The position numbers and the translations under genes are program-made. DNA of 64,000 nucleotides from Owenia fusiformis (lineage: Eukaryota; Annelida; Polychaeta; Sabellida; Oweniidae): NCBI GenBank assembly GCA_903813345.2, contig CAIIXF020000010.1, positions 32,392,425-32,456,424 of the forward strand, written 5' to 3'. Positions within the stretch are counted from its first letter, which is position 1; each line of letters opens with the position of its first letter. Below, one piece after another: positions 299 to 58,244 of this stretch. The notes under the pieces are model-generated. The model did no database searches. It had not been told where the DNA came from and saw only the letters and a list, made by a program, of their open reading frames with translations.

Positions 299-470
299 AA
301 TATACAAAGCCGGCTTTCAAAGCCGGCTTTTAAAGCCGGCTTCTACAGTACATCAGAAGCCGGCTTCTGGCGTCACCAAGAAGCCGGCTTTTAAAAACCG
401 GCTTCGAATGACTTACAGAAGCCGGCTTCTGCAGTTACCAAGAAGCCAGTTTTAAAAGCCAGATTCTCTC
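299..470. repeat. Left block of AAGCCGGCTT palindromes
   Basis: Repeated AAGCCGGCTT cores joined by variable spacers such as CTACAGTACATC and CTGGCGTCACC. It is the mirror of the block at 6455-6625. GC content is far above the flanks. Confidence 0.85.
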
Positions 471-3400
471 TCTCAATCATTTTGTTGTGCATTATGCATC
501 TTATTCTCGTATAATTAGCTTGGAAATGAGAAAAAATGAAAATAAGTAAAATTGTAACATATTGCAAGATTTTTTGCAAAAGGTAATTTCAAACCAAAAC
601 TATGGGGGAAATTTAATTCTAAGTAAAAATATCGAAATCGATATCGATTAAATCATGTTCGTTAAATAAGAGTAGATTATGCATTGCATTTCTGTTTGAT
701 AAAAACGCATCGCTCATTTTACAAAACTGGCTCAAACTTGGAGCCAGTTTGCAAATCAGCTCGCTCCATCTTACACAAGCTATGTAGGGACAATCTAGCA
801 ACTGGGAATCTCGGGATACTGTTTCATGATAATTGTTATGTGCATTATGCATCTTATTCTCGTATAATTTGCATGAAAATGAGAAAGAACTGAAAAATAT
901 GTAAAATTATTACATATTTCAAGATTTTTTGGAAAAAGTCATTTCAAGCCAAAACTATGACAGTAAATTGAATTCTAAGCACAGATATCGATGAATAAGA
1001 TCACATTCATTAAATCAGAATAGATTATGCATTGCATTTCCGTTTAATAAAAACGCACCACTCACTTTTCAAAACTGGCTCCAACTTGGAGCCAGTTTGC
1101 AAATCAGCTCGCCCCATATGGCAAATGCTATGTAGGTACAATCTGGTAACTGGGAATCACGAAATACTATCTCACGATTATTTTTATGTGCATTATGCAT
1201 GTTATTCTCGTATAATTTGCATGAAAATGAGAAAAACCTGAAAAATACATAAAATTGTAATATATTTCAAGATTTTTTGCAAAAAGTCATTTCAAGCCAA
1301 AACTATGAGAGAAAAATCAATTCTAAGTAAAAATATCGATGAATTAGATCATGTTCACCAAATCAGAACAGATTATGCATTGCATTTCCGTTTAATAAAA
1401 ACACACCGCTCATTTTACAAAACTGGCTCCAACTTGGAGCCAGTTTACAAATCAGCTTGCTCCATCTTACACAAGCTATGTAGGGACAATCTAGCAACTG
1501 GGAATCACGGGATACTGTCTCACGATCATTTCTATGTGCATTATGCATCTTATATTCGTATAATTTGCATGAAAATGAGAAAAAACTGAAAAATACGTAA
1601 AATTGTAACTTATTTCAAGATTTTTTGCAAAAAGTCATTTCAAGCCAATACTATGAGAGAAAAATTTATTTCTAAGTAAAAATATCGATGAATTAGATCA
1701 CGTTCACTAAATCAGAACAGATTATGCATTGCATTTCCGTTTTATAAAAACGCACCACTCATTTTTCAAAACTGGCTCCAACTTGGAGCCAGTTTACAAA
1801 TCAGCTCGCTCCATCTTACACAAGCTATGTAGGGACAATCTAGCAACTGGGAATCACGGGATACTGTCTCACGATCATTTCTTTGTGCGTTATGCATCTT
1901 ATTCTCGTATAATTTGCATGAAAATGAGAAAAAACTGAAAAGTACGTAAAATTGTAACTTTTTTCAAGATTTTTTGCAAAAAGTCATCTCAAACCAAAAC
2001 TATGAGAGAAAATTAGTTTCTAAGTAAAAATATCGATGAATTGGATCACGTTCACTAAATCAGAACAGATTATGCATTGCATTTCCGTTAAATAAAAACG
2101 CACCGCTCATTTTTCAAAACTGGCTCCAACTTGGAGCCAGTTTACAAATCAGCTCGCTCCATCTTACACAAGCTATGTAGGGACAATCTAGCAATTGTGA
2201 ATCACGGGATACTGTCTCACGATCATTTTTATGTGCATTATGCATCTTATTCTCGTATAATTGGCCTGAAAATGAGAAAAAACTGAAAAATACGTAAAAT
2301 TGTAACTTATTTCAAGATTTTTTGCAAAAAGTCATTTCAAGCCAATACTATGAGAGAAAATTTATTTCTAAGTAAAAATATCGATGAATTAGATCACGTT
2401 CACTAAATCAGAACAGATCATTGCATTTCCGTTTTATAAAAACGCACCACTCATTTTTCAAAACTGGCTCCAACTTGGAGCCAGTTTGCAAATCAGCTCG
2501 CCCCATATGACAAATGCTATGTAGGTACAATCTGGTAACTGGGAATCACGAAATACTATCTCACGATTATTTTTATGTGCATTATGCATGTTATTCTCGT
2601 ATAATTTGCATGAAAATGAGAAAAACCTGAAAAATACATAAAATTATAATATATTTAAAGATTTTTTGCAAAAAGTCATTTCAAGCCAAAACTATGAGAG
2701 AAAAATCAATTCTAAGTAAAAATATCGATGATTTAGATCATGTTCACCAAATCAGAACAGATTATGCATTGCATTTCCGTTTAATAAAAACGCACCGCTC
2801 ATTTTACAAAACTGGCTCCAACTTGGAGCCAGTTTACAAATCAGCTTGCTCCATCTTACACAAGCTATGTAGGGACAATCTAGCAACTGGGAATCACGGG
2901 ATACTGTCTCACGATCATTTCTATGTGCATTATGCATCTTATATTCGTATAATTTGCATGAAAATGAGAAAAAACTGAAAAATACGTAAAATTGTAACTT
3001 ATTTCAAGATTTTTTGCAAAAAGTCATTTCAAGCCAATACTACGAGAGAAAATTTATTTCTAAATAAAAATATCGATGAATTAGATCACGTTCACTAAAT
3101 GTTTATGTTTATGTTTATTTATTATTTGAAATACACACAAAATACAATATATGAACTGGGTGACACTTTAAAAAGTGTATATTCCCAATATTAGACAAAA
3201 TAATACATGTGTGTTGTCATACCTATTAAATGCAGTTGGGGACCTGCCTATGTATTCATCTATTTGAACGAAAGTATTGGTTTGTCACATCATAATAGAC
3301 CAAATGAGGTAAAGTTTTGGCATAATGTCAAAAGTGTTCTTGAATACAATTATACCAATGAGTGCAAATATACTTACAATGTAGTTTGAACATTATTTGG

Positions 3401-5004
3401 AACAGAGGCAAAATCAGGGGGTACAGCAGAGCTTATAGGAAATATAAGTCAGTTTAGTAAAAAACAAACAACAACAAAAAAAACCACAAAAACAGCATAA
3501 CTGTATGTGATTGAAATGTTACCATATGGGTCAGATATACTGAGCAATCATATTGAGAGCAGTTTTGTTCTTCGAAGAAACCAAAAGAGCATCAGAACAG
3601 ATTATGCATTGCATTTCCGTTTTATAAAAACGCACCACTCATTTTTCAAAACTGGCTCCAACTTGGAGCCAGTTTACAAATCAGCTCGCTTCATCTTACA
3701 CAAGCTATGTAGGGGCAATCTAGCAACTGGGAATCACGAGATACTGTCTCACGATTATTTGTATGTGAATTATGCATCTTATTCTCGCATAATTGGCCTG
3801 AAAATGAGAAAAACTGAAAAATACGTTAAATTGTAACTTATTTCAAGATTTTTTGCAAAAAGTCATTTCAATCCAAAACTATGAGAGAAAATTCGTTTCT
3901 AAGTAAAAATATCGATGAATTGGATCACGTTCACTAAATCAGAACAGATTATGCATTGCATTTCCGTTAAATAAAAACGCACCGCTCATTTTTCAAAACT
4001 GGCTCCAACTTGGAGCCAGTTTACAAATCAGCTCGCTCCATCTTAGACAAGCTATGTAGGGGCAATCTAGCAAATGGGAATCACGAGATACTGTCTCACG
4101 ATTATTTGTATGTGAATTATGCATCTTATTCTCGCATAATTGGCCTGAAAATGAGAAAAAACTGAAAAATACGTTAAATTGTAACTTATTTCAAGATTTT
4201 TTGCAAAAAGTCATTTCAATCCAAAACTATGAGAGAAAATTCGTTTCTAAGTAAAAATATCGATGAATTGGATCACGTTCACTAAATCAGAACAGATTAT
4301 GCATTGCATTTCCGTTAAATAAAAACGCACCGCTCATTTTTCAAAACTGGCTCCAACTTGGAGCCAGTTTACAAATCAGCTCGCTCCATCTTAGACAAGC
4401 TATGTAGGGGCAATCTAGCAAATGGGAATCACGAGATACTGTCTCACGATTATTTGTATGTGAATTATGCATCTTATTCTCGCATAATTGGCCTGAAAAT
4501 GAGAAAAAACTGAAAAATACGTAAAATTTTAACATATTTCATGATTTTTTGCAAAAAGTTATTTCAAGCCAAAACTATGAGAGAAAATTCATTTCTAAGT
4601 AAAAATATCGATGAATTAGATCAAGTTCTCTAAATCAGAACAGATTATGCCATGCATTTCCGTTTAATAAAAACGCACCGCTCATTTTTCAAAACTGGCT
4701 CCAACTTGGAGCCAGTTTGCAAATCAGCTCGCCCCATATGACAAATGCTATGTAGGTACAATCTGGTAACTGGGAATCACGAAATACTATCTCACGATTA
4801 TTTTTATGTGCATTATGCAGGTTATTCTCGTATAATTTGCATGGAAATGAGAAAAAACTGAAAAATACATAAAATTGTAATATATTTAAAGATTTTTTGC
4901 TTTTTGCAAAAAGTCATTTCGAGCCAAAACTACGAGAGAAAAATCAATTCTAAGTAAAAAATATCGATGAATTAGATCATGTTCACCAAATCAGAACAGA
5001 TTAT
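470..5004 (+). repeat. Direct tandem array, 11 copies of a ~347 bp unit
   Basis: Each unit holds the near-perfect palindrome AACTGGCTCC-A-A-C-TTGGAGCCAGTT; palindromes start at about 724, 1071, 1424, 1769, 2118, 2461, 2809, 3650, 3996, 4342 and 4690. Spacing is 343-353 bp apart from the interrupted interval. Short ORFs on both strands recur with the unit and are not genes. Confidence 0.92.
3100..3591. mobile_element. ~490 bp insertion inside the 347 bp array
   Basis: The unit is broken after CGTTCACTAAAT and resumes with ATCAGAACAGATT. The insert starts with (GTTTAT)n, which read on the minus strand looks like the AT-rich tail of a non-LTR element or SINE. No coding remnant is seen, so the class is tentative. 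Confidence 0.6.
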
Positions 5005-6420
5005 TAGAAATGAATTTTCTCTCATAGTTTTGGCTTGAAATGACTTTTTGCAAAAAATCTTGAAATAAGTTACAATTTAACGTATTTTTAAGTTTTTTCC
5101 CATTTTCAGGCCAATTATACGAGAATAAGATGCATAATTCACATAAAAATAATCGTGAGACAGTATCCCGTGATTCCCAGTTGCTAGATTGCCCCTACAT
5201 AGCTTGTGTAAGATGGAGCGAGCTGATTTGTAAACTGGCCCCAAGTTGGAGCCAGTTTTGAAAAATGAGCGTTGCGTTTTTATTAAACGGAAATGCATGA
5301 CATAATCTGTTCTGATTTAGTGAACGTGATCTAATTCATCGATATTTTTACTTAGAAATAAATTTTCTCTCATAGTTTTGGCTTGAAATGACTTTTTGCA
5401 AAAAATCTTGAAATAAGTTACAATTTTACGTATTTTTCAGTTTTTTCTCAGTTTCATGCAAATTATACGAGAATAAGATGCATAATGCACATAGAAATGA
5501 TCGTGAGACAGTATCCCGTGATTCCCAGTTGCTAGATTGTCCCTGCATAGCTTTTATAAGATGGAGCGAGCTGATTTGTAAACTGGCTCCAACTTGGAGC
5601 CAGTTTTGAAAAATGAGTGGTGCGTTTTTATAAAACGGAAATGCAATGCATAATCTGTTCTGATTTAGTGAACGTGATCTAATTCATCGATATTTTTACT
5701 TAGAAATAAATTTTCTCTCATAGTATTGGCTTGAAATGACTTTTTGCAAAAAATCTTGAAATAAGTTACAATTTTACGTATTTTTCAGTTTTTACTCATT
5801 TTCATACAAATTATACGAATATAAGATGCATAATGCACATAGAAATGATCGTGATACAGTATCCCGTGATTCCCAGTTGCTAGATTGTCCCTACATAGCT
5901 TGTGTCAGATGGAGCAAGCTGATTTGTAAACTGGCTCCAAGTTGGAGCCAGTTTTGAAAAATGAGCGGTGCGTTTTTATAAAACGGAAATGCAATGCATA
6001 ATTTGTTCTGATTTAGAGAACATGATCTAATTCATCGATATTTTTTACTTAGACTTTAATTTTCTCTTATAGTTTTGACTTGAAATGACTTTTTGCAAAA
6101 AATCTTGAATTATGTTATAATTTTACATATTTTTCAGTTTTTCCTTATTTTCATGCAGATTATACGAGAATAAGATGCATAATCCACATCAAAATGATCG
6201 GGAGACAGTATCTCGTGATTCCCAGTGGCTAGATTGTCCGTTAAACAACTTGTGTTTAATGGTGCGAGCTGATTTGAAAACTGGCTCCAAATTGGAGCCA
6301 GTTTTGAAAAATGAGCGGTGCGTTTTTATTAAACAGAAATACAATCCATAATATTTTTGGAATTGATGAACGTGATCAAATTCATCGATATCCATGCTTA
6401 GAATTCAATTTACCCGTATA
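5005..6420 (-). repeat. Inverted tandem array, 4 copies of the same unit
   Basis: Palindromes start at about 5236, 5578, 5926 and 6273, in the opposite orientation to the first array. The switch occurs abruptly at about 5004/5005 in mid-unit. The outermost copy is the most diverged. Confidence 0.9.
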
Positions 6421-6454
6421 GTTTTGCAAAAATATGACAATATAAACTATATTC

Positions 6455-6625
6455 AAAAGCCATCTTCTGCAGTACGTCAGTAAGTAAGAAGCCAGTTTTA
6501 AAAGCCGGCTTCTTGGTGACTCCAGAAGCCGGCTTCTGTTGTCCTTCAGAAGCCGGTTTTTAAAAGCCGGCTTCTTGTTGACTGTAGAAGCCGGCTTCTG
6601 TAGTACGTAAGAAGCCAGTTTGTCA
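6455..6625. repeat. Right block of AAGCCGGCTT palindromes
   Basis: The same palindromic cores as the left block with related spacers (CTGTAGTACGTAAG against CTACAGTACATC inverted). Confidence 0.85.
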
Positions 6626-6659
6626 AAGTGGTTTTTGCCTTCGAGTACTTCTGGATCCA

Positions 6660-9833: not shown

Positions 9834-12800
9834 TCAAGCATGAGGGGTAGTTACAGCTGCATGACTAGAGGAATTTATATTAGTTAAATTACTGACAGAA
9901 TCGTGAACTTTATTGTTCATTTGAGCTTTTTGCGCTTTCTTATATGTTATATATGATTTGATGTCACAGACGGCAGTTTTCATGTGAGTGACTATCGTTG
10001 GCAGGTCGATGATAAAAATAAACGCAAATACACCAATGATCACAAATAACCATGGCGACCCTATAGTATCTGCATTCTTAGCTTCCTCTGGGGGATACTC
10101 CACTCGTTTGGCTCTAACATAAACTTCTACAGGGGCGGGGGTAGTAAAGAATTCTTCTGTTGTGGAGACATATGTTGACGTAGCTTCAGTAGATGCGATT
10201 GTTACCACAGTAGTTGTCTCAATTGTTTCTATATATCCAGTAGTCGTCATCGCCGAAGTTGGGTTCTTCGTTGTTTGTATTATTTGTGATGGTCCACCTC
10301 GTTCAGCTAACTCACCAGTGCCATCTGGCTTACTGGTTTGTACAGGATCGGGAAGTCTTGTGTAACATTTCGGTATCGGGGCCCACCTACCATATTTAGT
10401 GCATACAACTGGCATATTAGGTGACAGATACAAACCATCAGAACACTCATAGAGTATCTGCTCCCCGAGATATGTCGTTCTTGGTTCATGGATGATTGTT
10501 GCCTTCTTTACATCTGGAAAGTCACCACAATTCACAAATTTACAATCTTTGACGATGTCCTCAATTGACCACTTTCCACTTAGACGGCATGTAATTTTGT
10601 CTACTCCAGCAACCCCGAAGTATCGTGTTGTACATGTGAACTGTGCAACACTGCGGTATAATGTCGAATTATCCAACAACGATACTGCTGCATTTGGCTG
10701 GATCCCTTTTGAAGATGAGAAAGAGGTGAACGGGTATGGTGGAGGGGGGCCACAGTTGGGTAGACACTCTGGAGGACTTGATAATGTCCCGTTTGGTAGG
10801 CAAGTCATATTGCTTCTCCCGACCATCACTGCTGAGCCTACGCAGCTATAAACTACGATGCTGTCAACTGTCAGATTGACAACGCTTGTTGTAATATTCT
10901 CGCTGTCAAGCTTGATAAACTTGTATTTCATATAAGATGTCGCTGGTGTCATAATGATAAGTTCGCTATCAGCACTACCAACATCGCCACCTGAATATTC
11001 AGCCTTTATAAAATTAATGTCCCCCATGTTTCCACTTCCGCTAGCCCCACTTCCACTCCATTCAAAAACAGATTCTTCATTACTACCACTACCAAATGTA
11101 CTATAATTGTATGCCCCCATTGGAGACGTTTCATACGGCATCTCGGTGGTGTATTTGATTTCCTGTTCGCTCCGATCTACATCTATTGAATAGACCTTAA
11201 GGAGGATATAAAACGTGGCATTGTAAATAGCAGGGTCGACAGTGCAATATATCTGTTGGCAAGTGGGAGTCTTAGTCCATGAACCATTCTCATTACACAC
11301 CATAAAATCTTCCTCTGCAATTTCAAATCCATATGCACACGTGTAGTTCTTTATTGAGCCAAAAGTCGTTGTGTCATCCCCTCCATCTTCAATTAGTGGG
11401 AATTCCACAGTTGCTTCGCCACAGTCCTTGGGGTTGCATTCAGGGGTCGGAGTCCAAAAGCCTTCTTGTTGACACCAAAGCTCGCTATCTCCCCAAAGGT
11501 CATACCCTGGGAAACATAAGTATTCTAGAAGGCTGCCATACATTGTAGTCAAGTCTGCTGTTCCTAAGATTATTTCCTCATAGGTGAACTGTTCATGCGA
11601 GGTCGCGTTTCGAACTAAAGCGTTCTTCACCTCTGGTGGACGACCACAGCCAACCATCGAGCAGTTACTATGTCCCTGCCAGTTTCCGTTAATATCACAA
11701 TACATGGTTCCATTTCCACTGAGCTCATAACCAACAGAACACGAAATATATGCAAATGACCCTACGTAGCTGTCATTCATGTATTCAGCAACGCCACCTG
11801 TAATGTTGATCTCTCCACAGTCAATTTGATCACAAAGTGGAAAGTCTTCCCATGTACCATTAGCCGTACAATAGATTGTATCATTTCCCCACATTGTATA
11901 ACCTGGATCACATACGTACTTGACAGATGACCCATATACCGTTGATGCATTCGGCATTGTGTTCATACCTCCAGATATGTTACTTGAAGGACCACAGTCG
12001 TTAATTTCACACACCGGCTGCATTGACCAAGTCCCCGTATCCTCACATAATATTGTCGCATTCCCTTCCATTGTGTACCCGACATGACATTCGTATTCAA
12101 CCACTGAACCATATGTTGTCATGTTATCCCCAATTGGATGTATGTCTGAGTTATTCACATGAGGCGGATTCTGACAATCTTTGATAATACAGTGAGGAAT
12201 AGAAGACCAGTTACCAGTCTCATTGCACACAACCAATGGGTCTCCAGTCATACTGAATCCGGGGTCACAGGAATAAAGGAACACGCTCTCATATGTTGTT
12301 TCCAACGGAGGGTCGTCTATCAACGCTGTGTCATTTTTCACTGAGGTTGTTTCATTGTGGGTAGTGTTAAATTCAGATCGTATTGCAACAGTTGTATATG
12401 TACCATTTTTGATATTATGTGGGGAGTTACAATCCGTTAGATTACAAAATGGTACATTTGTCCAATTACCATTTTCATCACATCGAATGGTATTATTACC
12501 AAACATAGTGTATCCAATGTTGCATTCATAAAAGGCAAGTGATTGATATACAGTTGTATTTTCAAATTCAAGTTCAGGTTGGAATGCATTGTCGATTCCT
12601 TCGGGATTGCCACAATCTTTGATCTTGCACAATGGTTCAATAGTCCACGATGTATTATACATGCACTCAATCGACTCATTTCCAACCATATCATATCCAG
12701 TGTCACAGATATATGTAACAACCGATAAATATGTTGTTGAAAAGTTAGTTGGATATGTAGTTGAGTTATGAACTGTATTAGGAGCGCCACAATCCCTTAT

Positions 12801-18059: not shown

Positions 18060-18487
18060 CTGTGGTATGTTATGTTTGTTACGTTACGTTACGTTACGTT
18101 ACGTTACGTAATGTTATGATATGTTATGTAATGTTATGTTTGCCATTTTATGTTATGTTATATTATGTTATGTTATGTAATGTTATGTTTTTTATGTTAT
18201 GTTATGTTATTTCATGCTATGTTTGTTATGCTATGTTATGTTGTGTTATGTTCGTTATGTTATGTTATGCTTTGCTATGTTATGTTATATTATGTTATGT
18301 TTGTTATGTTTGTCATGTTATGTTATGTTATGCTATGTTATATTATGTTATGTGATATTTTGTTGTGGTACATTATGTTATGTTTGTCATGTTATGCTTT
18401 GTTATGTTGTGTTATATTATGTTTGTTATGTAAGGTTATGCTTTGGTATGTTATGTTATGTTATGTTTTTACTACTTTATGTTATTT
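18060..18487 (+). repeat. (TTATG)n low-complexity array, left part
   Basis: Imperfect pentamer TTATG/TTATGC/TTTG variants. A 5-base period keeps several frames open, giving spurious MLCYVM-type ORFs. The array is interrupted by the transposon at 18490. Confidence 0.9.
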
Positions 18488-19611: not shown

Positions 19612-20430
19612 TATATTATGTTATATTGTGTTATGTTATGTTTTGTTTGTTATGTAATCTTATTTTATGTTTCTATGTTGTGTTATGTTAGGTTATGTTA
19701 TGTTATATTATGTTATATTTTGTTATATTTTGTTATGTTATATAATGTTCTGTTGTGTTATGTTAGGTTATGTTATGTTAGGTTATGTTATGTTTGTTAA
19801 GTTATGTTATATTATGTTATATTTTGTTATGTTATATTATGTTATATTGTGTTGTATCATGTTATATTATGTTATGTTAAGCTTTGTTATGTTGTGTTAT
19901 ATTATGTTTGTTATGTTATGTTATGCTTTGGTATGTAATGTTATCTTATGTTATGTTATGCTTTGTTATGTTATGTTATGTTTGTTATGATATGTTATAT
20001 TTTGTTATGTTATATTATGTTATATTTGTTATGTTTGTCATGTTATGTTATGTTATGCTTTGTTGTGTTGTGTTATGTTATATTATGTTATTCATGCTTT
20101 TTATATTATGTTATGCTTTGTTATGTTATGTTTGTTTTGTTATGTTATATTTTGTTATGTTATGTTATATTATGTTATGTTTGTTATGTTTGTCATGTTA
20201 TGTTATGTTATGCTATGTTATATTATGTTATGTGATATTTTGTTGTGGTACATTATGTTATGTTTGTCATGTTATGCTTTGTTATGTTGTGTTATATTAT
20301 GTTTGTTATGTAAGGTTATGCTTTGGTATGTTATGTTATGTTATATAATGTTATGTTATGTTATGCTTTGTTATGTTATGTTATGTTTGTCATGCTATGT
20401 TATGTTATGTTTGTTATGTTATGTTATGTC
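19612..20430 (+). repeat. (TTATG)n low-complexity array, right part
   Basis: Continuation of the array split by the transposon. Bases 20161-20344 are identical to 18281-18464 in the left part. Confidence 0.9.
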
Positions 20431-33522: not shown

Positions 33523-34114
33523 CTAAAATTAGTTGATTAGAAACCATGAATTTTATTTTGAGGGAAATAATCATTTGAGAAACAAACGCATGTGTTTAAC
33601 TTCAAATACCCTGCTGATTTGCCATTTTTGGCTGTTTTCCACATTAACACAGTTATGTACAGACATGACAGGGGTTAACTTGCATCGCCCGTTTTAAATC
33701 ATTATTAGATTGTCATTTTGATACAGCCGTTTAAGTGAAAAATATTATTGTCGCTCTGGCGTCTGGATATATTTGCCATAACATTTATTTATTTGGGAAA
33801 AAAGTTGTATACAGAAAAATACATGACAAATACTGACACCATAAGGCATATAAACACGTGAGTTAGATAATTATAAAAAATATTTAATTCATAATCACAT
33901 TTAAAATTAGTACCTCATTAACCCCAGTCAAGTTCAATGCAAATTAAATAATGTAAATTACATTTCTATTGGTATTAGGAGTTTACAATTATAAGTGATG
34001 TATAGAAGTGACAAGGCCATTTTAGAATATTTTTGATGATCATTTCTAATACATTTAAGTGGAATTTCCATACTTAAAAAACATGGAATTTCCATACTTA
34101 AAAAACGTCCATAC

Positions 34115-42584: not shown

Positions 42585-42782
42585 AACCACAAACTGGCGT
42601 ACGACCCGACCACAGCATGAAACGGGTCTGCTCATCAAATGTACAAGTCCGGCTCAGATCACCTTCTAAGTGAAGATAGCCTACGTTGCAATTATACTGG
42701 ACAGTCGCTCCCTCTCTAGTGTTTGGGTTTGGTCCTGCTATGTCCGAATTTGGAACAGGAGTGGGGTCATAGCAGTCAATGT
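42585..42782 (-). CDS. Exon 16: CCP/sushi domain
   Basis: IDCYDPTPVPNSDIAGPN then VQYNCNVGYLHLEGDLSRTC and WSGRTPVCG. The acceptor CTTAATTTATAG is followed upstream by a ~20 bp AT-rich tandem array that repeats the same tract. Confidence 0.88.
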
Positions 42783-42945
42783 CTATAAATTAAGAAATAT
42801 ATTATAAATTAAGAAAAATATTATAAATTAAGAAAAATATTATAAATTAAGAAACATATTATAAATTAAGAAATATATTATACATTAAGAAAAATATTAT
42901 AAATTAAGAAATATATTATGAATTAAGAAACTTATAATACCCAAA
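42783..42945. repeat. AT-rich minisatellite abutting the exon 16 acceptor
   Basis: About 7-8 copies of a ~20 bp unit ATAAATTAAGAAATATATT, beginning at the splice site itself (complement CTTAATTTATAG). Confidence 0.88.
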
Positions 42946-47406: not shown

Positions 47407-47622
47407 CAGTTTGCAGTGCCTCTATTTCATATTTCCACACTAGTCTATAGTTGCTATCTTCTGGCCGCCAAATTGTTGCAAAGAAACGCCCGGTGTTGCT
47501 TGCATAATATTGCACTCGGTCTAGCTGACCAGTGCAATTAAACTCATGACCAGGGTGAATCGTTGCAACTCGGTATTTATTTGAAAATTCATATGTCGGA
47601 TTATCATTCCCTGCTCTACACA
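47407..47622 (-). CDS. Exon 12: unassigned beta-rich domain, part 1
   Basis: Reads CRAGNDNPTYEFSNKYRVAT, then NCTGQLDRVQYYASNTGRFF and TIWRPEDSNYRLVWKYEIEA. I cannot assign the family; the alternating hydrophobic pattern suggests a beta sandwich. Its acceptor CATTATATTCCAG|TGTGTAG is the first copy of an ~18-copy minisatellite lying directly upstream in the intron. Confidence 0.82.
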
Positions 47623-48710
47623 CTGGAATATAATGAAAGTAAATGTAAATAAAATGTTCGGAAAGCATTCCCATGATACACAAACTGGAATATAATGAAG
47701 GTAAAATGTAAATTAAATGTTTAGATAGCATCCCATGATACACAAACTGGAATATAATGAAAGTAAATGTAAATAAAATGTTCGGAAAGCATTCCCATGA
47801 TACACACACTGGAATATAATGAAAGTAGATGTAAATAAAATGTCTGGATATCATCCCATAATACACAGACTGGAATATAATGAAAGTAAATGTAAATAAA
47901 ATGTTCGGAAAGCATTCCCATAATACACAGACTGGAATATAATGAAAGTAAATGTAAATAAAATGTTCGGAAAGCATTCCCTGCTACACACACTGGGATA
48001 TAATGAAAGTAAAATGTAAATAAAATGTCTGCATAGCATCCCATGATACACACACTGGAATGTAATGAAAGTAAAGTGTAAATAAAATGTTTGGAAAGCA
48101 TTCCCTGCTACACACACTGGGATATAATGAAAGTAAAATGTAGATAAAATGTCTGCATAGCATCCCATGATACACACACTGGAATATAATGAAAGTAAAA
48201 TGTAAATAAAATGTTTGGATAGCTTTCCCTGCTACATACACTGGAATATAATGAAAGTAAAATGTAAACAAAATGTTTGGATAGCTTTCCCTGCTACACA
48301 CACTGGAATATAATCATGAAAGTAAAATGTAAATAAAATGTCTGGATTGGTATTCCCTGCTACACACACTGGAATATAATGAAAGTAAATGTAAATAAAA
48401 TGTCTGGATTGGTATTCCCTGCTACACACACTGGAATATAATGAAAGTAAAATGTAAATAAAATGTTTGGAAAGCATTCCCTGCTACACACACTGGAATA
48501 TAATGAAAGTAAAATGTAAATAAAATGTTTGGAAAGCATTCCCTGCTACACACACTGGAATATAATGAAAGTAAAATGTAAATAAAATGTTTGGATTGGT
48601 ATTCCCTGCTACACACACTGGGATATAATGAAAGTAAAATGTAAACAAAATGTCTCGATAGCATTCACTGCTACAACACTAGAATATAATGAAAGTAAAA
48701 TGTATGGATA
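47617..48710 (-). repeat. Minisatellite (~61 bp, ~18 copies) carrying the exon 12 splice acceptor
   Basis: On the minus strand each unit reads ACATTTTACTTTCATTATAT then TCCAG and TGTGTAGCAGGGAATGC. The last unit is the real acceptor and first bases of exon 12 (TGTGTAGAGCAGGGAATG). The units stay open in the gene's direction; a 196-codon frame runs through six of them straight into exon 12. Some copies are 65-66 bp. Confidence 0.92.
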
Positions 48711-49943: not shown

Positions 49944-50024
49944 CTTTACAATTGTAGTATGCTCCATCCCATTGTTGATATTGGTTGCATGTCCTGACGG
50001 TGTCCCCATACCAATACTCATAAC
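49944..50024 (-). CDS. Exon 11: CCP/sushi domain, second half
   Basis: An 81-base exon reading GYEYWYGDTVRTCNQ then WDGAYYNCK, which supplies Cys 3, the Trp and Cys 4 missing from exon 10. The acceptor is TTAATTCCAG and the donor GTACGT. Confidence 0.83.
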
Positions 50025-52365: not shown

Positions 52366-53813
52366 GCATGTACTAAATGGTAATGGTGTAGATCTAAATA
52401 ATGCTAATGACATATGCGATGTACAAGTGTTGACTATATTGTGTGTAAACTCCACTTACCAGCATGTACTAAATGGTGATGGTGTAGATCTAAATAATGC
52501 TAATGACATATGCGATGTACAAGTGTTGACTATATTGTGTGTAAACTCCACTTACCAGCATGTACTAAATGGTAATGGTGTAGATCTAAATCTAGTAATG
52601 ATAATGACATATGCTGTGTACAAGTGGTGACCATATTGTGTGTAAACTCCACTTACCAGCATGTACTCAATGGTAATGGTGTAGATCTAAATAATGCTAA
52701 TGACATATGCGATGTACAAGTGTTGACCATATTGTGTGTAAACTCCACTTACCAGCATGTACTCAATGGTAATGGTGTAGATCTAAATCTAGTAATGATA
52801 ATGACATATGCGATGTACAAGTGTTGACCATATTGTGTGTAAACTCCACTTACCAGCATGTACTCAATGGTAATGGTGTAGATCTAAATCTAGTAATGAT
52901 AATGACATATGCTGTGTACAAGTGGTGACCATATTGTGTGTAAACTCCACTTACCAGCATGTACTCAATGGTAATGGTGTAGATCTAAATCTAGTAATGA
53001 TAATAACCATATAATGATAATGATATATGCTGTATACAAGTGGTGACCATATTGTGTGTAAACTCCACTTACCAGCATGTACTCAATGGTAATGGTGTAG
53101 ATCTAAATCTAGTAATGATAATAACCATATAATGATAATGATATATGCTGTATACAAGTGGTGACCATATTGTGTGTAAATTCCACTTACCAGCATGTAC
53201 TCAATGGTAATGGTGTAGATCTAAATCTAGTAATGATAATAACCATATAATGATAATGACATATGCTGTGTACAAGTGGTGACCATATTGTGTGTAATCT
53301 CCACTTACCAGCATGTACTCAATGGTAATGGTGTAGATCTAAATCTAGTAATGCTAATGACATATGCGATGTACAAGTGTTGACCATATTGTGTGTAAAC
53401 TCCACTTACCAGCGTGTACTCAATGGTAATGGTGTAGATCTAAATCTAGTAATGATAATGACATATGCGATGTACAAGTGTTGACCATATTGTGTGTAAA
53501 CTCCACTTACCAGCATGTACTCAATGGTAATGGTGTAGATCTAAATCTAGTAATAATAATGACATATGCGATGTACAAGTGTTGACCATATTGTGTGTAA
53601 ACTCCGCTTACCAGCATGTACTCAATGGTAATGGTGTAGATCTAAATCTAGTAATGATAATGACATATGCTGTGTACAAGTGGTGACCATATTGTGTGTA
53701 AACTCCACTTACCAGCATGTACTCAATGGTAATGGTGTAGATCTAAATCTAGTAATGATAATGACATATGCTGTGTACAAGTGGTGACCATATTGTGTGT
53801 AATCTCCACTTAC
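52366..53813 (-). repeat. Minisatellite (~95-118 bp, ~13 copies) carrying the exon 10 splice donor
   Basis: Each unit contains, on the minus strand, GTACATGCTG|GTAAGTGGAG and TTTACACACAATATGG. The first donor in transcript order is the real exon 10 donor (CAAGCCTG|GTAAGTGGAG). Donor-like sites start at about 52454, 52548, 52650, 52747, 52849, 52948, 53067, 53185, 53302, 53404, 53504, 53605 and 53707. Confidence 0.92.
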
Positions 53814-53915
53814 CAGGCTTGCAGTTGAGAAAGACACTACTGGAGTATGTAAAGTTGGTTCCTGTATACTCAGTATACTGCTGAACAAATTTATTGGGTT
53901 GTCCACAAACTTTTA
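53814..53915 (-). CDS. Exon 10: CCP/sushi domain, first half
   Basis: Reads KVCGQPNKFVQQYTEYTG and ends FLNCKP. The donor CCTG|GTAAGTGG splits the CCP after its second Cys in phase 1. This donor is the last copy of a ~100 bp minisatellite that repeats the same GTAAGTGGAG signal across the following intron. Confidence 0.85.
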
Positions 53916-57940: not shown

Positions 57941-58244
57941 TATTGAACCTTGAAAAATAGCGTTCGTGTGGATTGTTTATTGGCTACACTTAACAATTGA
58001 AGAAGGTGCTATTAGTTGTTTTTTCAAATTGAAACTTGGCATACTGGTTTCCATCAAATCTTGGAAAGCTTTAATCAAAAATTTCAAAAGAGATTGAACC
58101 TTGAAAAATAGCGTTCGTGTGGATTGTTTATTGGCTACACTTAACAATTGAAGAAGGTGCTATTAGTTGTTTTTTCAAATTGAAACTTGGCATACTGGTT
58201 TCCATCAAATCTTGGAAAGCTTTAATCAAAAATTTCAAAAGAGG
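57941..58244 (+). repeat. Perfect 152 bp tandem duplication
   Basis: Two copies starting ATTGAACCTTGAAAAATAGC, at 57941 and 58093, with no difference that I can see. Intron between exons 6 and 7. Confidence 0.92.

What the first reader, a model, noticed from the sequence alone, without database searches (positions are those of the whole stretch)
47617..48710. A splice acceptor amplified about 18 times next to exon 12
The ~61 bp minisatellite unit contains the complete 3' splice site of exon 12 plus its first coding bases. Each copy is a potential acceptor, and the units are open in the sense direction, so use of an upstream copy could add about 20 residues per unit. A minisatellite with its boundary exactly on an exon edge is unusual.
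Basis: partly seen in the sequence, partly recalled or inferred. Interest (0 to 1): 0.72.

Follow-up and report, generated by a model that had tools for sequence, protein, structure and literature searches.

The report
Splice-junction mirage minisatellite beside exon 12
A short stretch of DNA straddling the start of one exon has been copied about 18 times in a row, a real but already described kind of repeat growth that recurs at other exon edges in this animal's genome and that most likely leaves the protein unchanged.

Summary
The array is real: 18 copies of a 61-66 nt unit (47605-48704, minus-strand gene), all keeping the acceptor AG. The unit spans the junction: about 32 nt of intron plus about 30 nt of exon 12. 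It is not singular. The same gene carries a 14-copy donor array at another exon and a polypyrimidine array ending at a third exon's acceptor. Elsewhere in the genome, 5 of 6 donor arrays read begin at coding exons (UGDH, CTDNEP1, MRPL52, BLOC1S5, a tetraspanin). Per motif occurrence, donor arrays are no commoner than arrays of a reversed control word. Such structures are already named 'mirages' in amphioxus, where RT-PCR suggests normal splicing; IFI6 and ABCA7 are human donor cases. Best explanation: passive tandem amplification, tolerated because the exon-proximal copy is spliced. No RNA could be examined. New member of a known kind; its recurrence in conserved genes makes it a natural test of how splicing picks one of many near-identical sites.

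The parts
   Evidence: AG|TGTGTAGAG ... AAACTG|gtaaat; paralogous exons in L011 and L016 begin within one codon of the matching place, just before the first Cys, in the same phase (aligned by eye)
47605..48704 (-). acceptor 'mirage' array, 17.7 copies of a 62-nt unit (about 32 nt intron end + about 30 nt exon start)
   Evidence: TRF; 18 acceptor-like sites with spacings 61-66 nt; unit alignment
47808..47931 (-). the two upstream acceptors (first exon bases 47808 and 47931) whose use would be in frame and open (+62 and +103 residues)
53814..53915 (-). exon 10: first half of a CCP/Sushi domain, 102 nt
   Evidence: Sushi together with the next exon, E 2.6e-6; edges
52366..53816 (-). donor array: 14 copies of CTG|GTAAGYGG, including the donor of exon 10; spacing 101 nt (8), 118 nt (3) or 96 nt (2)
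   Evidence: TRF; all 13 downstream donors would read into the same stop, 21 codons past exon 10
49944..50024 (-). exon 11: second half of the CCP domain, between the two arrays
42784..42930 (-). third exon-edge array: 19-nt polypyrimidine unit x 7.7 ending at the AG of the CCP exon that starts at 42782; upstream copies read TATAA where the last reads TATAG, so they are not acceptors

Best explanation
The array is a 'mirage' minisatellite: a segment straddling the junction of the intron with exon 12 was tandemly duplicated and then grew by slippage or unequal exchange. The exon-proximal copy stays under coding constraint and is the one spliced, because it makes the shortest exon and the only reliably open frame; the other 17 copies are carried in the intron as largely neutral decoys. 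Shown: copy number, junction-spanning unit, frame consequences, recurrence elsewhere in the gene and genome, no excess of donor arrays over a control word. Inferred: that the proximal copy is the one used, and how the array grew.
For: 18 copies with AG and exon-start likeness. Exon start position (within a codon) and phase match paralogs L011 and L016 (by eye), so copy 18 marks the older junction. Fifteen of 17 upstream copies would break the frame or stop. The same build occurs as a donor array in the same gene and at exon ends of a tetraspanin (PF00335, 2.5e-11), BLOC1S5/Muted (PF14942, 3.7e-14), MRPL52 (PF18699, 3.4e-7), CTDNEP1 (PDB 8ujl, 7e-11) and UGDH (PDB, 2e-18). Counting only intact GT sites in the reading frame of the protein match, no downstream donor is free of a stop in BLOC1S5 (0 of 28), CTDNEP1 (0 of 5), UGDH (0 of 9) and MRPL52 (0 of 3 read; the array is longer), nor any of the 4 upstream UGDH acceptors; those genes can hardly work unless the proximal copy is used. 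Array rate per motif: 6 arrays per about 3,880 AGGTAAGT against 13 per about 7,010 control words, p = 0.81. Amphioxus mirages have the same anatomy, and RT-PCR suggests that they do not disturb regular splicing (PMC3087553, passages).
Against: No RNA, no second individual and no related species could be examined. In this gene 3 of 6 arrays between 42000 and 54200 touch an exon edge, against 0.32 expected by random placement (P = 0.002, post hoc), more clustering than a purely passive view predicts. Raw hits exceed the reversed control in all three array patterns: 550 against 269, 140 against 51 with CAGGTAAGT, 611 against 18 with TTTTTCAG (mostly dispersed repeats in the listed rows); for the first the excess goes only when arrays rather than hits are counted and motif frequency is allowed for, and the other two were not normalised. 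The tetraspanin array is in frame and open in 17 of 17 downstream donors, so extension is possible there. Within the units the intron part looks better kept than the exon part, not tested formally.
Confidence: 0.8

Rival explanations
1. One reading: upstream copies serve as alternative acceptors and lengthen the protein by about 20 residues per unit.
For: All 18 copies keep AG; copies at +186 and +309 nt are open and in frame; in IFI6, two downstream repeat units are used as donors (stated in PMC4526556, passage).
Against: 12 of 17 spacings are 62 nt; 15 of 17 upstream copies shift frame or stop. The added sequence would be rich in phenylalanine and isoleucine, in a protein whose neighbouring exons encode extracellular domains.
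Confidence: 0.05
2. The decoy acceptors (and the donors at exon 10) leak at a low rate and feed transcripts into nonsense-mediated decay, so that array length tunes the gene's output.
For: Most alternative copies bring stops. In ABCA7, a VNTR whose unit contains the donor, one retained unit gives a frameshifted transcript; premature-stop transcripts rise with cycloheximide, and skipping of the next exon rises with array length (PMC5954066, passages).
Against: In the same ABCA7 study the one-unit retention itself did not depend on array length. Lancelet mirages are reported not to disturb splicing (PMC3087553; PMC3902484). Nothing here shows selection for array length or for keeping the decoys.
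Confidence: 0.12
3. Assembly artefact.
For: Long tandem arrays are hard to assemble; one amphioxus mirage was misassembled in the draft genome (PMC3087553).
Against: Copies differ from one another (88% matches) and include private indels; neither array matched any other place scored by the genome search. Exact copy number may still be wrong.
Confidence: 0.02

Closest known systems
Amphioxus 'mirage' minisatellites (Adh3, globins BflGb6 and BflGb9, troponin C, PGBD5)
   Same: Tandem units spanning an intron-exon boundary, many carrying AG or GT signals, on either exon edge; BflGb6 repeats the 3' end of an intron plus the 5' part of exon 2, the layout found here; unit lengths 10-160 bp (PMC3087553 and PMC3902484, passages).
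   Different: Those are lancelet genes with RT-PCR evidence, and with length and somatic instability reported at Adh3. Here no RNA or second allele is available.
Human IFI6 (6-16/G1P3) minisatellite
   Same: Minisatellite at an exon end that offers several donors (Turri 1995: title seen in reference lists; use of two downstream units stated in PMC4526556; the paper itself is not held).
   Different: Donor, not acceptor; its 12-nt unit (recalled) keeps the frame, whereas 62 nt does not.
Human ABCA7 intron 18 VNTR
   Same: 25-bp unit including the exon 18 donor; one-unit retention causes a frameshift (PMC5954066, passages).
   Different: Donor side; long alleles associated with disease. Closest to the exon 10 array here.
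Tandem repeats at exon-intron boundaries of human segmental-duplication genes
   Same: Minisatellite-driven changes at boundaries: 27 intron modifications kept after inspection (PMC2812944, passages).
   Different: Reported for recent paralogs and linked to novel introns; here the identified genes keep an intact proximal junction.

Membership tests
Mirage minisatellite | Tandem units span an intron-exon boundary, with both intronic and exonic parts | tested here: met
   Alignment of 18 units: about 32 nt intron plus about 30 nt exon likeness
Mirage minisatellite | Units carry a splice signal (many, not all, in amphioxus) | tested here: met
   AG in 18 of 18
Mirage minisatellite | Unit length 10-160 bp | tested here: met
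   61-66 nt; range quoted from PMC3087553
Mirage minisatellite | Can occur at 5' and 3' exon boundaries and in several genes of the genome | tested here: met
   Exon 10 donor array; UGDH exon with both kinds; four further identified genes
Mirage minisatellite | Does not disturb regular splicing | not testable with these tools
   No RNA data; only the frame argument
Mirage minisatellite | Length (and somatic) instability | not testable with these tools
   One assembly only
Mirage minisatellite | Reported in cephalochordates | tested here: inconclusive
   Host not named. In the family and pattern searches megabase coordinates appear only on C1-C12; total 498 Mb; window GC 34%. Owenia fusiformis is 505.8 Mb in 12 scaffolds (PMC9977687, passage). 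Not a species test.
IFI6-type repeat supplying alternative splice sites for protein isoforms | Unit keeps the reading frame so isoforms differ by whole units (12-nt unit recalled) | tested here: not met
   62-nt unit; 2 of 17 upstream copies open in frame
IFI6-type repeat supplying alternative splice sites for protein isoforms | Extra copies found in mRNA | not testable with these tools
   No RNA

The most novel reading that the evidence does not exclude
Junction-spanning minisatellites are a genome-wide, recurrent feature of an animal lineage other than lancelets, and in a few genes the extra sites are used: array length would tune decay of transcripts of this receptor-like gene, and in the tetraspanin gene, where 17 of 17 downstream donors are in frame and open, it would give proteins with a variable number of membrane-segment-like repeats.
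Probability: 0.08. Interest if true: 0.75.

Novelty: new member of a known kind. Interest (0 to 1): 0.42.

Why it matters
Conserved genes with 5 to some 50 near-identical donors or acceptors in a row, of which (in four of the five identified genes) only the proximal one keeps the protein intact, are a ready-made test of how the spliceosome chooses among near-identical sites. Acceptor and donor arrays make opposite predictions for 'first transcribed' against 'shortest exon'. They are also raw material for intron sliding and gain. If the proximal copy is always used, the finding itself is ordinary repeat growth.

Tried and rejected
Dispersed satellite or mobile element as the source of the unit: rejected as far as the search scores; each array matched only this locus, though the tool warns that it skips very common words.

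Structured RNA or tRNA: no hits. Exons 12 plus 13: no significant PDB hit (best E 0.51) and no Pfam family at its cut-off; six weakly similar places exist elsewhere in the genome (E 7e-9 to 9e-4), identity unknown.

The BLOC1S5 exon was first taken for dynein from memory; Pfam shows Muted and PDB nothing.

The acceptor-word search TTTTTCAG x3 (611 hits against 18 for the control) is dominated in its listed rows by dispersed repeats and was not used as a rate. Of 8 listed candidates that looked like local arrays I fetched 6: 1 of 6 (L088, 52 nt x 17, running into an open exon of an unidentified gene; no Pfam or PDB hit) appears to span a junction, and its 12 upstream acceptors found by the script meet stops in all three frames; L087 and L090 lie about 14 and 35 nt from a probable exon edge without containing it; L089, L091 and L092 show no junction inside the array (exon edges by eye).

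Of the 6 donor arrays visible in the listed rows, L084 (58 nt x 10) could not be tied to an exon; of the MRPL52 array only the first 4 copies were read. Ten further donor arrays in the listed rows (one, on C3, irregular) were not read. Array counts (6 and 13) were made by eye from listed rows, which cover only C1, C2 and the start of C3; one control array (C1:36898709) is doubtfully periodic. True donors are only part of the AGGTAAGT words, so the rate per true donor is higher by an unknown factor.

One search used the wrong frame for CTDNEP1 and MRPL52 and counted some unit positions without GT; one search repeats it with the right frames and intact GT only.

A sample of 100 regions of 10 kb around domain exons, to measure distances of arrays from exon edges, was planned after and could not be fetched.

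Full report
What was checked. The window lies in a 498 Mb animal genome held as G000, contig C10. The gene is on the minus strand; its exons encode MAM, CCP/Sushi, SRCR and EGF domains. TRF places the array at 47605-48704, period 62, 17.7 copies, 88% matches. The minus strand gives 18 acceptor-like sites; the last is the acceptor of the exon 47622-47407 (216 nt). Spacings are 62 nt in 12 of 17 intervals, 61 in 3, 63 in 1 and 66 in 1.

The unit straddles the junction. Anchored at AG, the intronic 32 nt match the real copy at 26-32 positions and the exonic 30 nt at 20-25 positions over 30-32 columns; shuffling the exon start, for one unit only, gave a mean of 15.3 and a maximum of 22 in 2000 trials, so the best units exceed every shuffle and the weakest do not. 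AG is present in 18 of 18. The array was therefore not cut exactly at the exon edge: it runs into the exon, and coding constraint on the true copy probably explains why the likeness fades there (inference). Weakly similar exons elsewhere in the genome begin, in L011 and L016, within one codon of the matching place, just before the first cysteine and in the same phase (by eye; the tool's own alignments start further in). This marks copy 18 as the older junction.

Coding consequence. Entering each acceptor in phase 1, 6 of 17 upstream copies are in frame with exon 12 and only 2 of 17 are also open, adding 62 or 103 residues; the other 15 shift frame or stop.

Not alone in this gene. Exon 10 (53814-53915) is followed by an array at 52366-53816 with 14 copies of CTG|GTAAGYGG counting its own donor; all 13 downstream donors would read into the same stop 21 codons after the exon. 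A 19-nt polypyrimidine unit x 7.7 (42784-42930) ends at the AG of another CCP exon, its upstream copies having AA for AG. Among 6 arrays between 42000 and 54200, 3 touch an exon edge; random placement gives 0.32 on average and 3 or more in 0.2% of 20000 trials. That test was devised after the fact, on seven hand-read exons, one with a doubtful donor.

Not alone in the genome. A search for three AGGTAAGT at 33-62 nt spacing gave 550 hits against 269 for the reversed word; with CAGGTAAGT 140 against 51. The listed rows show 6 separate arrays, and the start of each was read. Five begin at a coding exon whose end is part of the unit: tetraspanin (54 nt x 18, Pfam 2.5e-11), BLOC1S5/Muted (52 nt, 31 unit positions read, 29 with intact GT, Pfam 3.7e-14), CTDNEP1 (52 nt x 6, PDB 7e-11), UGDH (45 nt x 12.7, PDB 2e-18) and MRPL52 (59 nt; about 50 copies by the listed coordinates, 4 read; Pfam 3.4e-7). 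The sixth (L084) is unresolved. The UGDH exon also carries a 130-nt acceptor array of 5 sites on its other side, and the tetraspanin exon a twofold 120-nt repeat of its acceptor side. Counting intact GT only, every downstream donor read brings a stop in BLOC1S5 (28 of 28), UGDH (9 of 9), CTDNEP1 (5 of 5) and MRPL52 (3 of 3), as do the 4 upstream UGDH acceptors; the tetraspanin array is open and in frame throughout (17 of 17). Two of nine unit lengths are multiples of three.

Rate. AGGTAAGT occurs 19,107 times, the reversed word 33,894 times. Over C1, C2 and the start of C3 that is 6 donor arrays per about 3,880 words against 13 control arrays per about 7,010 (p = 0.81). Donor junctions are thus neither clearly favoured nor clearly avoided at this resolution; the confidence interval is wide, arrays were counted by eye, and only part of the words are true donors. 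The simplest view is a high background birth rate of minisatellites, with junction-spanning ones tolerated.

Mechanism. Inferred, not shown: a short duplication across the junction, growth by slippage or unequal exchange, and continued splicing at the exon-proximal copy, which makes the shortest exon. For donor arrays this is the first copy transcribed, for acceptor arrays the last, so the two kinds separate 'shortest exon' from 'first come'.

What is known. [quoted passage not shown] PMC3902484 (one passage) adds PGBD5 and troponin C. PMC5954066 (passages) describes the ABCA7 VNTR with the exon 18 donor in its unit; there one-unit retention did not depend on array length, while skipping of the next exon did. 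PMC4526556 (passage) states that IFI6 uses two downstream repeat units as donors. PMC2812944 (passages) and PMC10809524 (passages) treat tandem repeats at human exon-intron boundaries and dual-use sites in repeats; PMC2891723 (passages) intron gain by tandem duplication; PMC4039745 (passages) an intronic minisatellite linked to alternative splicing in C. elegans. Turri 1995 and Canestro 2002 were not held.

Host. Not named. In the family and pattern searches megabase coordinates appear only on C1-C12; the total is 498 Mb and window GC is 34%. Owenia fusiformis is given as 505.8 Mb in 12 scaffolds (PMC9977687, passage). That is a resemblance, not an identification. If the host is not a lancelet, mirages reach well beyond cephalochordates. 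In ten literature searches (the last was on Owenia's assembly) I saw, in the listings and passages, no junction-spanning minisatellite outside lancelets and human; they cover only the held open papers.

Verdict. Real, junction-spanning, probably passive; a new member of a known kind, interesting mainly as one of several natural experiments in splice-site choice within one genome.

Noticed in passing
L053 1236-2442 (G000 C1, about 442.5-443.7 kb): Tetraspanin exon whose acceptor side is duplicated (120 nt x 2) and whose donor side is repeated 18 times in 54-nt units; 17 of 17 downstream donors are in frame and open, which would add 18-residue membrane-segment-like repeats.
   Followed up: partly
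L085 3-1294 (G000 C2, about 33.703-33.704 Mb): A UGDH exon is flanked by both an acceptor array (130 nt, 5 sites) and a donor array (45 nt x 12.7); every non-proximal site with intact signal brings a stop.
   Followed up: partly
L084 862-1430, read on the minus strand (G000 C1, about 51.116 Mb): 58-nt unit x 10 reading CTCTCTCATAG|TCCTAG|GTAAGTG: each unit holds an acceptor-like and a donor-like site six bases apart; no exon was identified.
   Followed up: no
   Followed up: no
window 462-3100 and 3591-6426: Long stretches of a 348-nt tandem repeat, with AAGCCGGCTT-rich repeats at both outer ends (305-457 and 6479-6628), which may form one inverted structure.
   Followed up: no
window 18066-18468 and 19612-20429: Arrays of the pentamer TATGT.
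   Followed up: no
window 57942-58243: Two 151-nt copies that are 100% identical, a recent tandem duplication.
   Followed up: no
window about 11830-12620: Minus-strand open frame of 1526 aa with three listed Sushi matches, in a stretch of higher GC; a different gene style from the split one studied here.
   Followed up: no
window 34060-34106: A perfect 24-nt duplication lies just past a likely donor of a C-type-lectin-like exon (by eye); possibly another exon-edge repeat.
   Followed up: no
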